A DNA stretch of 64,000 bases from Fibrobacter sp. (GCA_024399065.1 JAKSIB010000004.1:62001-126000), one strand, 5' to 3'. Shown: positions 58,255 through 64,000, counted from the stretch's first letter. Numbers and translations are program-made. Notes: generated from the letters alone by a model not told the origin.

Positions 58255-58758
58255 TTAGACCTTGAGGCTCTTGAGCTGTGCGGCAACGAACTTGTCACCA
58301 ACCTTGGTAACGACGGCTGCAGTCAGCTTGGAGGTGGTAACGATCTTGTTCTTGTTGGCGTAGGCGAGCAATTCAGTGTTGAACTTGACTGCGAAAGCTG
58401 AGTCTTCCAAGAGGCTGATTTCTGCAAGAATCTTCTGGTTGTTGGCGATAACAGTCTTGTTCTTTGTTCTGAAGGTATTCATTTTGCTGTCGAAAGTCTC
58501 CATGAAATCGCGGAGGACGGGGATGCCTGCGGTTTCGTTGGGGAAATTCTTGCCGAGAACTACGATTTCTTCGAAATGCTTCTTGAGTTCAGCGAGGGTA
58601 ACGTCGCCTGCGGTGGAACCCGGACGGATGAGTTTCTTTCTCAGGACAGCAATGCGCTTGTCGCGGTAGCTGAGAAACAAGGATGTTGCGCGCTTCTGCA
58701 TTGCAGGGGAAAATTCCTTCTTTTCTGCGAGAAGCTTAATGGAAGTATTTGTAGCCAT
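58255..58758 (-). CDS. Helical Cys-free protein downstream of a radical SAM gene
   Basis: A 167-residue soluble protein of mostly helical, Lys-rich composition with no cysteine, no signal and no transmembrane helix. It opens MATNTSIKLLAEKKEFSPAM and ends FVAAQLKSLKV. Its ATG lies 15 bases after the radical SAM stop, with GGAG in GGAGATAAATCC before it, so the two are one operon. It could be the substrate or a chaperone of that enzyme, or an unrelated structural protein. I recognise no family. Confidence 0.6.
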   Translation of the reverse strand: MATNTSIKLLAEKKEFSPAMQKRATSLFLSYRDKRIAVLRKKLIRPGSTAGDVTLAELKKHFEEIVVLGKNFPNETAGIPVLRDFMETFDSKMNTFRTKNKTVIANNQKILAEISLLEDSAFAVKFNTELLAYANKNKIVTTSKLTAAVVTKVGDKFVAAQLKSLKV

Positions 58759-58773
58759 TGGATTTATCTCCTT

Positions 58774-59883
58774 TTATTTGTTGTTGGATTGAGAAATTTT
58801 AGCCAAGGTGTCGTCGCAGATGGCGGCGAGAATCCTTTCGTGATTGCATACCTCGGGTGAAATGCCTTCGATGGAGCCCGTGGTGTAGAATGCGGTGCAG
58901 GCGCATTCGTGGGCTACGCAACGGTGTCGAATGGCGCATCCCTTACATTGGGGCTTGTCCTTTTTCAGGTAGCTGTATATATGCTTCGACATGGTGTCGT
59001 TGAAAAGGTTGGGCTTTTGATTCAGCACATTCCCCAGAATGTATTTTGCATCGCTCTTGCTCGAGATAAAGCGGGTGCAGGGGAAAATGTTTCCGTTGGT
59101 GGACACGCTCATGCCACCCTTCACGATGTTACAGGTCAGTTCTCGCTTGCGGAATCCAAGGGACTCCAGCAGTATCTTGTCGTAAATGGTGCCCAGGTAG
59201 AAATTCTTACCCTGCCTGAAGTTCTTTAGCCAGAACAAGGCCATTTTTTGGTATTCCAGGGCAAGGCTGTCGAATGCCTCGGTTGTCCAGTTCCCATCGA
59301 AATCCGGGGCTGTAGTCATTTGCGTAAAACCCTGTTTGAAAACCCATTCTACCGACTTGGCGAGCCCCTTTACGTGAGCAGGTGTCACTACGGAAAGGAC
59401 CGTTGCATCCAAATCTACAAGCTGTTGGATGTGGGGCTGGATCAGCTTGAAACTTCCCTTGCCATTGACCTGCTTTCGTGCGATGTTGTGGAAACGTTCC
59501 GGGCCATCTAGCGAAATGTACACTTGGAATTTTTCGCGCTTCAGGAATGCGACGATGTCATCGTTGAGCAAAGTCCCGTTGGTATTTAAGGCAAATTGCA
59601 GCCTGAAATCTTTCGGCAGTTCCTTGCGCCGGGCCTTTACCAACTCCTTTGCAATCTTTACGCCCTTTCGCATGGATCCTAGGCGTAGCAAGGGCTCGCC
59701 GCCGAAGAAGGTGATGTTAAAAAAGTTCTGTTCAAGTTCAACGGTGCGGTTGAAAGCAAGCTTGATCGCACTTTCGAGAACCTCGTCGGACATGACTAAT
59801 TCTCTTTCTTCATGACTGACTTTATAGTAGCAGTAGGTGCAGCGGAGATTGCATTGCTCTGTAAGACTGAGTACTAAATTCAT
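58774..59883 (-). CDS. Radical SAM/SPASM enzyme
   Basis: About 369 residues. It belongs to the radical SAM enzymes with a SPASM C-terminal domain, which modify peptides or proteins or activate sulfatases. The SAM cluster motif CNLRCTYC lies 12 residues from the chosen start, followed by FFGGEPLLR and FALNTNGTLL. The C-terminal part has CNIVKGGMSVSTNGNIFPC, CKGCAIRHRC and ECACTAFY, giving enough cysteines for two auxiliary [4Fe-4S] clusters. The long frame starts at 59982, but the family normally begins just before the CxxxCxxC; MRKSLFF at 59907 is another option. The substrate is not known; the 167-residue partner follows at once. Confidence 0.85.
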   Translation of the reverse strand: MNLVLSLTEQCNLRCTYCYYKVSHEERELVMSDEVLESAIKLAFNRTVELEQNFFNITFFGGEPLLRLGSMRKGVKIAKELVKARRKELPKDFRLQFALNTNGTLLNDDIVAFLKREKFQVYISLDGPERFHNIARKQVNGKGSFKLIQPHIQQLVDLDATVLSVVTPAHVKGLAKSVEWVFKQGFTQMTTAPDFDGNWTTEAFDSLALEYQKMALFWLKNFRQGKNFYLGTIYDKILLESLGFRKRELTCNIVKGGMSVSTNGNIFPCTRFISSKSDAKYILGNVLNQKPNLFNDTMSKHIYSYLKKDKPQCKGCAIRHRCVAHECACTAFYTTGSIEGISPEVCNHERILAAICDDTLAKISQSNNK

Positions 59884-59970
59884 AACAAAAAACAAAGATT
59901 TTCGCATAAAATAACATTGATTTTTGCCGTGTACAGAGCAGTTTCGAGTAAATAAAATCTTTACAGACAA

Positions 59971-60120
59971 ATTGTCATACACTGTAATACAGATGTATTA
60001 CAATGCAATGTTTGCGCAGTACAATTGCGCTTTTTTACGATGATTTTTTACAAACAACAGCTTGCAAAGAAATAATCTTCAATTTTTTTTGTATGACGTG
60101 TAATGCAATTGTATGACAAT
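59971..60120. promoter_or_regulatory. Divergent control region with palindromes
   Basis: The 400-base AT-rich gap between the radical SAM gene and the 60292 gene holds a perfect 9-bp palindrome TGTAATACA-GA-TGTATTACA (59983-60002). It also has the decamer ATTGTCATAC (59971) with its inverse GTATGACAAT (60111) and near copy GTATGACGTG (60091). These look like operator sites shared by two divergent promoters. A weak hairpin GCGCAGTACAATTGCGC with six T follows at 60015-60037. Confidence 0.55.
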
Positions 60121-60291
60121 TAAATACAATGTTTGTACGTACAATTACGTTGTTTATACTCTGTTAATTTGTAAAAAAAAAGGTTCATTCCTTTGCTGAT
60201 TTACTTCGTAAAAATAAGATACATTTGGCTTACTTTTGGATTAGCTAATACAAAGAAAGACAAATAAAGTAATAAAAAAGGAAAGAACAAA

Positions 60292-61971
60292 ATGAGTGAA
60301 ACAACTGAAAACGTTGGTGGTCAGCAGGAAAATCCGGTTGATGTGAATAAGGACAGTGTCAATGATATTCTTGGTCAAGATACTTTGATGCAATCTGTTT
60401 TGGGAAAACTCTATGGCATCCTTACCACGGGTGATGAAGTTGCTCCTCCGAGTGAAGATAATTTCTTTGCATGGACAACGCCGGGTTATCCCATTGTTCC
60501 TGAAGATTACGAGTTTGCAGCCCTTGGCGTAAGCGGTGAAACCATTGACAAGGAAGAACTGAAGCGCCGCGTTACGGAACGTATTGCCGAACATGAAAAG
60601 AATCGCTTGGCATCCGGAAATGAATCTATCGAGGCTCTCGATACTAATGCTGTTGTTGCAGAAATTAAGGATGAAATGCAGAAAGAAAGTCAGCAGCGTA
60701 GAGTGAGTTCTGCATGTGACTTTGCTTCTTTGGTTGACTTTATTCCCGATGTTTCTGGAAACAGCCAGTCTAATTTGAAGACCATGTATGGCGAAGGTTC
60801 TCTTTCCGACGTGTACGAAAGCATCTTGACCATGAGTCAGGTGAAGAAGGCTGAATTGACTGAAGCCGAAAAGGCCATGTGCGAAAAGAATCGCGAACTT
60901 TTGGGCGAAAAGGTTGAAGAAGTGGTTGACATTCTTGGCGAAAAGACCACTAAGATTACCCCGAGCCCCTTGATGGATGCATACAACAGATACCAGGATG
61001 CCTACGAAGAAGCTGTTAGCACTTACCATGCTCAGATGATTGAAGGTACTCTCGGTGATTTGAAGGCTAGACAGCTTTGGACAATGAATGGCCCGACATT
61101 GAGAAAGCGTGTTAATACTGCTAGCACCAACTGGACAGTTTCCGGTTATAAGAACCAGGTTGAAAAGCTGTCTGCCCAGTTGGCTCAGATTGAATCTCGA
61201 GACTTCAGCATTCTTAAGGAAGGCTACAAGCAGCTCCTTGAACACTACAAGATGTCCAATGCAAACCAGGAATTCCTTTATACCACATTCTCTCCGTCTA
61301 ACTTCGTGAAGTCTAATGGTTGGACCAAGTTTGTATTTGAATCTAAGGAAGTTGGCACACAGAGCCATGCGGACATGAAGAGCCATAGCCGTTCCATTAC
61401 AACCAAATCAGGCAGTATTTTCCATAGCCATTCTACTACAAACACAGAAGCATCCTCTTCTCACAACATGTCTAGTTCCTTGAATGCATTGGACTTTACG
61501 CTCTCCTTTGAATTCTGTCAGGTGAAGATCGTAAGACCTTGGTTTAAGGAATCTTTCTTGACCAGCAGATACTGGCGTTTTGATCCTAAGATGGAACGTG
61601 CTGGTCAGGTGTTGAGCGATGGCGGCAATCCTCCTAAGGGCATCATGGCTGCTTACCCCACATCTATGCTTGTTGTCCGTAATCTGACTCTCAAGTTCAA
61701 GACTACAGAAATGGCAAGTGCTTTTAGCGATAGCTTTAAGTCTAAGAGTGCTGAATATAAGGGTGGCGTAAACATTGGTTGCTTCAACATCAGTGCTGGT
61801 GCAGGTTACTCCAATTCTGATTCTAGTGGTAATGCTGATTCAAATAGCCACTTCAAGCAGTCTGGTCAGGAAATTACCATCGAAGGCATGCAGGTGATTG
61901 GTTTCAACTGCCATGTTCTCGGCCAGTCTCCGAATCCGAATCCCGAAATCGGCGATGAGGAATGGATCTAA
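60292..61971 (+). CDS. Large protein of an unrecognised family, paralog of the next gene
   Basis: A 559-residue protein without signal peptide, so probably cytoplasmic or exported by another route. Residues 1-130 are polar and acidic. About 165-330 is helical, coiled-coil-like (VKKAELTEAEKAMCEKN, NTASTNWTVSGYKNQVEKL). About 360-410 is a Ser/His-rich stretch (HADMKSHSRSITTKSGS). About 415-550 is beta-rich with VKIVRPWFKESFLTSRYWRF, PTSMLVVRNLTLKFK and the end NCHVLGQSPNPNPEIGD. The same order of segments occurs in the 62051 protein. AAGGAAAGAACAAA precedes the ATG. A terminator follows. I recognise no family. Confidence 0.65.
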   Translation: MSETTENVGGQQENPVDVNKDSVNDILGQDTLMQSVLGKLYGILTTGDEVAPPSEDNFFAWTTPGYPIVPEDYEFAALGVSGETIDKEELKRRVTERIAEHEKNRLASGNESIEALDTNAVVAEIKDEMQKESQQRRVSSACDFASLVDFIPDVSGNSQSNLKTMYGEGSLSDVYESILTMSQVKKAELTEAEKAMCEKNRELLGEKVEEVVDILGEKTTKITPSPLMDAYNRYQDAYEEAVSTYHAQMIEGTLGDLKARQLWTMNGPTLRKRVNTASTNWTVSGYKNQVEKLSAQLAQIESRDFSILKEGYKQLLEHYKMSNANQEFLYTTFSPSNFVKSNGWTKFVFESKEVGTQSHADMKSHSRSITTKSGSIFHSHSTTNTEASSSHNMSSSLNALDFTLSFEFCQVKIVRPWFKESFLTSRYWRFDPKMERAGQVLSDGGNPPKGIMAAYPTSMLVVRNLTLKFKTTEMASAFSDSFKSKSAEYKGGVNIGCFNISAGAGYSNSDSSGNADSNSHFKQSGQEITIEGMQVIGFNCHVLGQSPNPNPEIGDEEWI

Positions 61972-61995
61972 TCCAATCTAATCATAAATAAAAAA

Positions 61996-62037
61996 AAGCA
62001 CGGCCCCTTCGATTGGGGGAGGGGCTGTGTTCTTTTT
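61996..62037 (+). terminator. Terminator after the 60292 gene
   Basis: AGCACGGCCCC-TTCGATTGGGGG-AGGGGCTGTGT followed by CTTTTTTTT. Its end is only 13 bases before the next start, so it may allow partial read-through. Confidence 0.8.
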
Positions 62038-62050
62038 TTTGAGGGTTATC

Positions 62051-64000
62051 ATGAATTCAAAAGTACTTGTAGCATTTCACCAAAAATTGAAAAGCATTTA
62101 TGAAGAAGGCGATGCTAAAAAGAATGACCGCTTTCTTTGCCTACCAAAAGAGTCTACTGCCTATTTTTCAGATGAAATTGAATTGTTGACAAATCCCAAG
62201 CTGGATAATCTGGAAACTTACAATAGAGATCTGAACACTATCTTTGAATTTTCCCATAAGATGAATGTCCCTATTAAGGGAAATGTGGCTCTTGAGGTGG
62301 ATTCTGAAGATAATCTTTGGACTGTTTATCATGATGCTATTTCCAAGTCTGTCATGGCTGCTGGCGTAAATGATTCTGTACTGAATGAGAATTACAAGAA
62401 AGCCCGAGAACTCTTGTATGATGACTCTGGCGATTACGGCGTGGTAAAGCCCATATACGAGGAATACAATAAGTACCGCGATATGTATTTCACGCAGGAA
62501 GACTCCTGCAATATGATTAACAATTCCTTGAATTTGGCAGAAAGCAAGGAAGAACGCGAAGCTATTCTTGCTGAATTGGAAAGAGCACGACAGAATTTGC
62601 AGACCATTAATCAAGATTGGTTGACAAATGGTCACAAGCTGGAAGTAGAAACTGCAATAAAAAATATTGAACTTTATGCTGCCTCGCAGCCGGAAGTTTA
62701 TCGAAAAAATCTGACAGATTCCTTTGATACGGAAATCGATACAAAGACCAATGGCGAAAAGGGAACCTTCGCAACGACTTATTTGTATCCGTCTGGATTT
62801 GAAAAAGAGGAGTGGGACTGCTTATACCTTTCTGGTGAAGAAGTTAAGGAACTCTATGAAAATGCTCCTGATAATATCAAGGCACTTTGCGATGACAATG
62901 TCAACTTGGACAAAATTTCCGAAGTTTCTATTGAATATCGTTCTGTGAGGGTTGAACGCCCTTGGCTTAACACCAAGTTCCTTGAATCAAGAAACTGGTA
63001 TTTCCCGAAAACATCTGAGTTTAACCAGATTTCCTATGCAGATGAACTATCCTTGGGTAGGTTCCCGGCATTTATTTCTGCTGTGCTGATGTACCGTAAC
63101 CTGGATATTGTCAACAAGGAAGATTCTGAGGTTAAGACAAGTGATGCTTCAAACTCTGTTGTAGAACAGAAGACTCGTCGAAGGGTTTTGGCTGGTAAAC
63201 GAGTTCTGATGATGCGCTCTCGTAAATTACGTAGCTTTGCTCCGATTACGAAAAACGTTGCAGTTGAATCGCCTGTTACTGCAGAAGCTAAGGCTCCAAC
63301 GCCGGCAGTGGAAGAAGCTAAGGCTCCGGCAAACGAAGACGTAAAAAATGAATTCAAGCCCATAGCGATTCTTTCTTATATCTGCAAAAAATTGCCGGAT
63401 TGTCCGAATCCTAATCCCAGTGAGAACTGGGGTGATACCTTTGAAATGTCGCTGGTATCTGTTTCTCAGGTCCACGGCGGTACCTTGAGGGCTTATGTAG
63501 GCAGCAACCAAATTTTGAGTTCTTATTTGCCTCGTGGAACAGCTCTGAAGTTTGTTGCAACACCAGATATTGAAAACGGCTACGTCATTAAGTATTGGCG
63601 CGTGAATGGGGAAAATATTCAGTGCGCATCAAAGGTGTACGAGACAACTCTTGGTGAAGAAGATCTCCAGGTTGAAGTCGTATGGGATAAGGGCGTAGAA
63701 GTTGTCGCATCTTACAAATTGAGTAAGGACAAAAAGAAACTTTCTTCTTGGAACGGCCCCGATCCTATCGTTTTCATGGATAGCGTGCCTAGCTTGGCTA
63801 GCGTTGATACTATTACCAAGGATGCCTTCCGTGGAAACAGTAGCCTTCAGCGAATCAGTATCGGTTCTTCTGTCAAGTGCATTGAAAGTCAAGCTTTTGC
63901 AAATTGTGATAAGCTTGAAATGGTTGATATTCCGGAAGAAACGACGATTATTGATCAAACAGCATTTTTGAATTCAAGAAAACTAGAGAAGTACCCGAAT
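62051..64000 (+). CDS. Paralog of the 60292 protein with C-terminal BspA-type leucine-rich repeats, 3' end outside the window
   Basis: I translated 650 codons without a stop, from ATG 62051 to the window edge. Residues 1-260 are helical (LWTVYHDAISKSVMAAGVND, KPIYEEYNKYRDMYF). About 295-355 matches the paralog (VRVERPWLNTKFLESRNWYF, FPAFISAVLMYRNLDIV). An Ala/Pro/Lys/Glu linker lies near 410-430, then the shared end ILSYICKKLPDCPNPNPSENWGD near 440-465. From about 470 there is a beta domain (TFEMSLVSVSQVHGGTLRAY), and from about 595 LRR_5/BspA-like repeats (AFRGNSSLQRISIGSS, AFANCDKLEMVDIPEET). GAGGG is 5 bases before the ATG. No family recognised for the first 590 residues. Confidence 0.65.
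   Translation, partial: MNSKVLVAFHQKLKSIYEEGDAKKNDRFLCLPKESTAYFSDEIELLTNPKLDNLETYNRDLNTIFEFSHKMNVPIKGNVALEVDSEDNLWTVYHDAISKSVMAAGVNDSVLNENYKKARELLYDDSGDYGVVKPIYEEYNKYRDMYFTQEDSCNMINNSLNLAESKEEREAILAELERARQNLQTINQDWLTNGHKLEVETAIKNIELYAASQPEVYRKNLTDSFDTEIDTKTNGEKGTFATTYLYPSGFEKEEWDCLYLSGEEVKELYENAPDNIKALCDDNVNLDKISEVSIEYRSVRVERPWLNTKFLESRNWYFPKTSEFNQISYADELSLGRFPAFISAVLMYRNLDIVNKEDSEVKTSDASNSVVEQKTRRRVLAGKRVLMMRSRKLRSFAPITKNVAVESPVTAEAKAPTPAVEEAKAPANEDVKNEFKPIAILSYICKKLPDCPNPNPSENWGDTFEMSLVSVSQVHGGTLRAYVGSNQILSSYLPRGTALKFVATPDIENGYVIKYWRVNGENIQCASKVYETTLGEEDLQVEVVWDKGVEVVASYKLSKDKKKLSSWNGPDPIVFMDSVPSLASVDTITKDAFRGNSSLQRISIGSSVKCIESQAFANCDKLEMVDIPEETTIIDQTAFLNSRKLEKYPN

What the first reader, a model, noticed from the sequence alone, without database searches (positions are those of the whole stretch)
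60292..64000. Undescribed pair of large paralogs, one with a BspA-type repeat domain, divergent from the radical SAM operon
The two proteins share an order of helical region, a (V/I)xRPWx(3-4)FLxSRxW segment and a CPNPNP/SPNPNP end, yet match no family I know. The second adds a beta domain and leucine-rich repeats. They lack signal peptides. With the neighbouring radical SAM operon and shared operator-like palindromes, this may be one functional system.
Basis: partly seen in the sequence, partly recalled or inferred. Interest (0 to 1): 0.75.

Follow-up and report, generated by a model that had tools for sequence, protein, structure and literature searches.

The report
Undescribed co-inherited protein pair, possible pore-formers
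Two adjacent genes in a Fibrobacter-like genome belong to an unnamed protein family that travels as a fixed pair through many bacteria and an archaeon, often next to proteases or cell-wall-cutting enzymes, so it may be an unrecognised membrane-piercing (cell-lysis or attack) system rather than part of the neighbouring radical SAM genes.

Summary
P1 (window 60292-61971) and P2 (62051 to beyond the window; 961 aa) are true paralogs (profile-profile E=2e-49) of a family with no Pfam, NCBIfam, PHROG, PADLOC, PDB-sequence or Foldseek assignment. Motif, profile and plasmid searches found it sporadically in Bacteroidota, Fibrobacterota, Actinomycetota, Pseudomonadota, Acidobacteriota, Desulfuromonas and a methanogen, nearly always as a co-directional tandem pair. 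First and second genes form mirrored clades (mirror-tree r=0.84, 0/5000 permutations), so the pair is old and co-inherited. P1-type proteins carry two Gly/Ser-rich amphipathic hairpins between predicted sheet strands; P2-type proteins lack them and carry variable tails (LRR, zinc ribbon and TM anchor here; LysM elsewhere). Neighbours are often cytoplasmic hydrolases: caspase, trypsin-like, papain, AvrRpt2-like C70, muramidase, CHAP/NlpC. Bacterial gasdermins keep the same company. Best explanation (confidence 0.4): a two-component membrane-perforation/lysis module, gasdermin- or holin/endolysin-like in logic but not detectably homologous. The radical SAM link is local: that enzyme occurs with its own small ORF in 54 genomes, beside the pair in three. 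Function is inferred, not shown.

The parts
60292..61971 (+). P1: first gene of the pair, 559 aa; N-terminal helical half (res. 29-318), C-terminal beta domain with two hairpins; no signal peptide seen
   Evidence: ORF; AF2 pLDDT 69, pTM 0.64; family by iterative HMM
61345..61494 (+). P1 hairpin 1 (res. 352-401), Ser/Gly/Thr-rich, between predicted strands 345-350 and 402-414
   Evidence: A5 alignment composition 31% G+S, alternation z 1.6; pLDDT <50
61522..61575 (+). P1 signature VKIVRPWFKESFLTSRYW
   Evidence: R415, W417, W428 invariant in 19 P1-type proteins
61744..61872 (+). P1 hairpin 2 (res. 485-527), G-x-G-P-F-like tip in relatives, between strands 454-469 and 527-542
61927..61944 (+). 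P1 SPNPNP end motif (PNPDP-like in relatives)
62051..64000 (+). P2: second gene of the pair, 961 aa, continues to 936 bases past the window end; lacks the two hairpins
   Evidence: AF2 of the core pLDDT 72, pTM 0.60
62945..62998 (+). P2 signature VRVERPWLNTKFLESRNW
63401..63418 (+). P2 CPNPNP end of the core
63518..63688 (+). P2 InlB-like beta domain (sub-threshold)
   Evidence: PF18998 15.1 bits, also found in Bacteroidales L123
63797..63991 (+). P2 BspA-type LRR segment; beyond the window follow a zinc ribbon (P0002 res. ~680-701) and a C-terminal TM (res. ~936-957)
   Evidence: PF13306 E 3e-12; TM by hydropathy; same architecture end to end in L123
59884..60291 (.). Divergent intergenic region with TGTATNACA palindromes (59970-60005, 60110-60121)
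58774..59883 (-). Radical SAM/SPASM protein, PapB-like; neighbour, not judged part of the pair's system
   Evidence: PF04055 58 bits; NF047865 212 bits, below its cutoff of 340
58255..58758 (-). Small Lys-rich ORF downstream of rSAM, candidate rSAM substrate; not part of the pair's system
   Evidence: similarly placed small ORFs in other genomes of the genus

Best explanation
P1/P2 is a two-component membrane-perforation module made in the cytoplasm. P1-type proteins are soluble until triggered, then insert two amphipathic hairpins per subunit and oligomerise into a pore. P2-type proteins are the paralogous partner that lacks the hairpins and anchors or regulates the assembly (tail-anchored in the window). 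The neighbouring hydrolase is either the activating protease (caspase, trypsin-like, papain, C70) or an endolysin-like enzyme released through the pore to cut peptidoglycan (in the window an NlpC/P60-like protein with an SH3 domain and a second SH3 protein; elsewhere muramidase and CHAP amidase). Outcome: self-lysis, for defence or for release of cell contents. Shown: the family, the pair, co-inheritance, domain layout, neighbours. Inferred: insertion, pore, activation, lysis.
For: Obligate pair: 25 of 25 complete pairs tested are co-directional with gaps of -20 to 106 bp, mirror-tree r=0.84, 0/5000 permutations; 17 second genes form one clade at 97% SH-aLRT, mirrored by their partners. P1 topology: four main C-terminal strands with two G/S-rich alternating segments, both largely below pLDDT 50, inserted after strands 1 and 3; P2 keeps the strands and lacks these segments. 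Neighbours without TM or evident signal peptide: C14 caspase + trypsin-like + pair + PF11860 muramidase (L105), trypsin (L111), C70 79 bits (Pedobacter/Chitinophagaceae), C1 45 bits (archaeon), muramidase 216 bits + TIGR02594 (L104), CHAP (L107, L115). Matching protein motifs in 9/40 immediate neighbours vs 2/195 distant genes. Bacterial gasdermins are reported beside caspase-like and trypsin proteases and sometimes lysozymes/amidases, with a holin-endolysin analogy (PMC9612521); two-component, protease-activated pores exist in Bacteroidota (CDCLs; PMC11952106).
Against: No sequence or Foldseek match to any pore-former; the models are of middling confidence exactly at the hairpins, and strand order in 3D was not inspected. 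About two thirds of loci have no recognisable hydrolase next door. The motif enrichment used regexes written after seeing the neighbours, so its p-value is biased; it is backed by Pfam/NCBIfam hits in individual loci. In the window itself the NlpC/P60 call is below Pfam's cutoff (14-15 vs 23 bits) and the second enzyme has only SH3 domains at significance. The window P1 hairpins are more polar than those of Bacteroidota. S. meliloti and another alphaproteobacterial-set relative (L066, L112) look exported.
Confidence: 0.4

Rival explanations
1. Exported antagonism complex: P1/P2 carry or aim a hydrolase effector (peptidoglycan hydrolase or protease) at other bacteria, through a secretion or contractile-injection route; P2 tails (LRR, LysM) give binding.
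For: Interchangeable hydrolases with a constant pair; LysM at a P2 C-terminus; cell-wall enzymes aimed at peptidoglycan; signal peptides in S. meliloti and L112 relatives; a Hint-like protein in one Fibrobacter operon.
Against: Most members have no signal peptide; the window and L123 P2 have a zinc ribbon and a C-terminal TM tail, which suit a cytoplasmic anchored protein; no recurrent secretion genes or immunity gene recognised.
Confidence: 0.25
2. A non-lytic membrane or protein-handling module: a scaffold or adaptor pair that presents hydrolases to substrates (envelope remodelling, stress proteolysis).
For: Wide range of enzyme neighbours including a phosphoesterase and C92-like protein; many loci without any enzyme.
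Against: Sporadic distribution (7/345, 3/296, 2/349 genomes, centres included) is unlike housekeeping; several loci sit beside restriction or TIR genes.
Confidence: 0.2
3. One reading: the pair and the radical SAM operon are one system (the pair as substrate, transporter or immunity of a modified peptide).
For: Adjacent and divergent in the window with shared palindromes; adjacent again in G014/G088 with a different subfamily of the pair; an rSAM gene directly upstream of three family genes in S. meliloti.
Against: rSAM cassettes usually lack the pair (54 genomes with rSAM); most pair loci lack rSAM.
Confidence: 0.08

Closest known systems
Bacterial gasdermins (bGSDM)
   Same: Predicted sheet with two insertion hairpins; genes next to caspase-like, trypsin-like and other proteases and sometimes lysozymes/amidases (PMC9612521)
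   Different: No sequence or Foldseek match (best gasdermin E=0.85, prob 0.10); a large helical N-terminal half; two paralogous genes; 440-840 aa rather than a short single-domain protein
CDC-like two-component toxins (CDCL long/short) and MACPF/CDC
   Same: Two paralogous components in Bacteroidota, one with an extra domain; two membrane hairpins per pore-forming subunit; protease involvement (PMC11952106)
   Different: MACPF/CDC core signature absent (1 stray match in 76 proteins); no Pfam match; most members lack a signal peptide; the partner lacks hairpins rather than adding a domain 4
Holin-endolysin lysis cassettes
   Same: Membrane component next to muramidase/amidase without signal peptide
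   Different: Not in phages, no PHROG match, far larger than holins
BspA-type LRR surface proteins
   Same: P2 carries a BspA LRR segment
   Different: No signal peptide; C-terminal TM anchor and zinc ribbon; the LRR is absent from most P2-type relatives
PapB-like radical SAM RiPP maturase loci
   Same: Neighbour in the window
   Different: Pair absent from most such loci; not part of the family's usual company

Membership tests
Bacterial gasdermin | Recognisable gasdermin sequence profile | tested here: not met
   No relevant Pfam match in 19 P1-type proteins; none in PADLOC for P1/P2; no PDB sequence match
Bacterial gasdermin | Gasdermin fold | tested here: not met
   Foldseek: 7n52 at E 0.85, prob 0.10, TM 0.10/0.20; the model is only pLDDT 69
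Bacterial gasdermin | Two membrane hairpins inserted in one sheet | tested here: inconclusive
   Composition, alternation and DSSP fit; hairpins at pLDDT <50, strand order not checked
Bacterial gasdermin | Adjacent protease gene | tested here: inconclusive
   Present in several lineages (C14, S1, C1, C70) but absent from most loci
Bacterial gasdermin | Pore formation and death after cleavage | not testable with these tools
   Needs biochemistry
MACPF/CDC/CDCL | Core signature [YFW]G..[FYW]x6GG | tested here: not met
   1 of 76 proteins, at an aberrant site
MACPF/CDC/CDCL | Paralogous two-component pair | tested here: met
MACPF/CDC/CDCL | Secretion signal | tested here: not met
   Window P1/P2 and most relatives start without one; S. 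meliloti and L112 are exceptions (by eye and hydropathy)
Holin-endolysin cassette | Phage gene or PHROG family | tested here: not met
rSAM/RiPP biosynthetic system | Constant association with the rSAM gene | tested here: not met
BspA-like surface LRR protein | Exported, repeat-dominated protein | tested here: not met
   LRR is about 65 of 961 residues; no signal peptide; C-terminal TM

The most novel reading that the evidence does not exclude
P1/P2 founds a new family of two-component pore-forming proteins in bacteria and archaea, not homologous to gasdermins or MACPF/CDC, which carries out protease-triggered or endolysin-coupled cell lysis (defence or altruistic release).
Probability: 0.33. 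Interest if true: 0.85.

Novelty: new variant of a known kind. Interest (0 to 1): 0.62.

Why it matters
A paralog pair that has stayed together across several phyla and an archaeon, with a family-wide signature and no entry in the family, phage, defence or structure resources searched, is a real gap in annotation. If it is a membrane-perforating module, it adds a second lineage with gasdermin-like logic (variable proteases and endolysins beside a constant pore) and makes a testable prediction about bacterial cell-death or antagonism systems. The members named here give small laboratory-friendly versions (e.g. Pedobacter, about 480 + 510 aa plus a 170-aa protease).

Tried and rejected
Pfam, NCBIfam, PHROGs, PADLOC and PDB sequence searches for P1/P2: nothing beyond the LRR. 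Weak hits DUF3349, Glyco_transf_61, RecT and PDB hits with E>0.1: chance, not shared by relatives. Phage origin: no match in 50,697 phage records; three IMG/VR motif matches are chance (phage genes unlike the family). Four of 28 genome motif hits (L070, L075, L087, L094) are chance. MACPF signature: absent. Literature: six RefSeq accessions of members have no mention; LypABC (PMC13236601) uses trypsin-like and NLR parts with no gasdermin, and its description does not resemble this family. A GH24-lysozyme reading of the fourth gene (ITIGFGH) was not supported by Pfam or PDB and is not claimed. My own expectation of a constant hydrolase partner failed: most loci lack one.

Full report
What is there. 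P1 (60292-61971) and P2 (62051 onward) are intact, co-directional ORFs 79 bp apart. The held genome (G000, contig C4) completes P2 at 961 aa and shows two further co-directional genes after gaps of 11 and 10 bp: a 388-aa NlpC/P60-like protein with a bacterial SH3-like domain and a 496-aa protein with two SH3_3 domains. The NlpC/P60 call is below Pfam's cutoff but carries the expected Cys (IDCSGFV), PGD and His (NFHVRVV) order; the last protein's enzyme class is not established. P2 is core, CPNPNP, InlB-like beta domain, BspA LRR, zinc ribbon, and a C-terminal TM segment.

The family. P1 hits other proteins only weakly at first, but bridging through a relative in another family of the same phylum (G102) led to rhizobial and Acuticoccus plasmids. 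A degenerate DNA pattern for [VI]x[VI]xRPWx4[LF][LF]xSRxW scanned over GTDB gave 28 hits, 24 in family-like frames. An iterated HMM then found 62 family ORFs in the loci held. Hosts include Pedobacter, Hymenobacter, Flavihumibacter, Chitinophagaceae, Flavobacteriaceae, Bacteroidales, Nonomuraea, Phytoactinopolyspora, Rhodobacteraceae, Rhizobium, Acidobacteriota, Desulfuromonas and the archaeon Methanomethylovorans; the Nitrosocosmicus hit is a fragment on a 3-kb MAG contig and could be misbinned. Distribution is sporadic: 7/345 genomes of the Bacteroidota set, 3/296 Actinomycetota, 2/349 Pseudomonadota, 2/247 Bacteroidales, centres included.

The pair. Members come as two tandem genes almost everywhere. 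P1-type and P2-type profiles align with E=2.4e-49. In a tree without the longest branches, 17 second genes form one clade (SH-aLRT 97%) and their 17 partners another, with mirrored sub-branches; a Rhizobium/Acidobacteriota group and the long Fibrobacter pairs (G014, G008, G018, G064, G083) have their own first/second split. Distances among first genes track those among second genes (r=0.84, 25 pairs, 0/5000 permutations). Shared host phylogeny adds to r, but the tree joins distant hosts (window with a Bacteroidales bacterium; archaeon with Desulfuromonas; Nonomuraea with a Rhodobacteraceae bacterium), which points to joint horizontal transfer. The window P2 and the Bacteroidales P2 (L123) share the whole architecture to the TM tail.

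Structure. AF2 with 19 (P1) and 12 (P2) family sequences gave mean pLDDT 69 and 72. P1 has a helical N-terminal half, then strands 345-350, 402-414, 454-469 and 527-542; the segments after the first and third (352-401, 485-527) are 31-33% Gly+Ser, alternate hydrophobic/polar more than shuffles (mean z 1.6 and 1.9 over related sequences) and are mostly below pLDDT 50. P2 keeps four strands but replaces the first segment by a short helical one and the second by a disordered linker. This is the order expected of proteins that insert two hairpins from one sheet, but strand packing was not inspected and Foldseek finds no significant match in PDB or viral models.

Neighbours. Immediate co-directional neighbours include AvrRpt2-like C70 protease, papain C1, trypsin-like, C14 caspase, PF11860 muramidase with PG-binding domain, TIGR02594/CHAP amidase, a C92/NlpC-like protein and a calcineurin-like phosphoesterase; none shows a signal peptide or TM by hydropathy or eye. 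One Bacteroidota locus (L105) has caspase, trypsin-like protease, the pair and a muramidase on one strand. Motif matches: 9/40 first neighbours against 2/195 other genes; the regexes were written after seeing the neighbours, so that contrast is biased. Roughly two thirds of loci have no such neighbour. Several loci lie beside restriction-modification, TIR or DUF4062-like genes, so a defence role is possible but untested.

Comparison. Bacterial gasdermins are described as lying beside caspase-like and trypsin proteases and sometimes lysozymes and amidases, with a holin-endolysin analogy (PMC9612521); CDCLs are protease-activated two-component pores in Bacteroidota (PMC11952106). The present family resembles these on contextual and topological grounds only; membership was tested by sequence, signature and fold and not met.

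The radical SAM operon. It is a PapB-like rSAM/SPASM gene with a downstream Cys-free Lys-rich ORF, of a kind found in 54 genomes of the genus, usually without the pair. Linkage to the pair in G000 and G014/G088 exceeds naive chance (2-4 rSAM genes per ~3.5 Mb), yet involves two different subfamilies of the pair and may reflect shared insertion sites. The palindromes in the divergent region are real, so co-regulation in this genome remains possible.

Verdict. A real, widespread, unnamed two-gene family; mechanism proposed at 0.4; link to radical SAM not supported as a rule.

Noticed in passing
window 58255-59883 and loci L033-L062: A Fibrobacter-wide rSAM/SPASM cassette (54 genomes, often 2-4 copies) with highly variable small co-directional ORFs, some Lys-rich and Cys-free, some Ser-rich and lipoprotein-like: possibly an uncharacterised RiPP-like or protein-modifying family.
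   Followed up: partly
L066 1742-14174 (Sinorhizobium meliloti T073 plasmid accessoryA): A TIGR04463-like rSAM gene directly upstream of three family genes, two with evident signal peptides, followed further on by several TIR-domain genes.
   Followed up: no
L007 17772-19996 and L008 1-2149 (G014): Several adjacent proteins share an N-terminal region that looks by eye like the DUF4157 leader of contractile-injection effectors, about 4.5 kb downstream of a pair; large ORFs that look baseplate-like follow.
   Followed up: no
L028 4011-6416 (G083): An 801-aa protein with a Hint-like C-terminal domain (sub-threshold) beside a long Fibrobacter pair, amid three copies of a small ORF.
   Followed up: no
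L031 5945-7295 (G088): The pair is decayed by stop codons while two flanking rSAM cassettes remain intact.
   Followed up: no
L119 10173-13582 (Pelagimonas): Three large, apparently paralogous unknown genes lie directly upstream of the pair on the same strand.
   Followed up: no
L064 7960-8688 and L122 10794-11522: A 242-aa unknown protein sits directly upstream of the pair in two Rhizobium genomes; no Pfam or NCBIfam match.
   Followed up: partly
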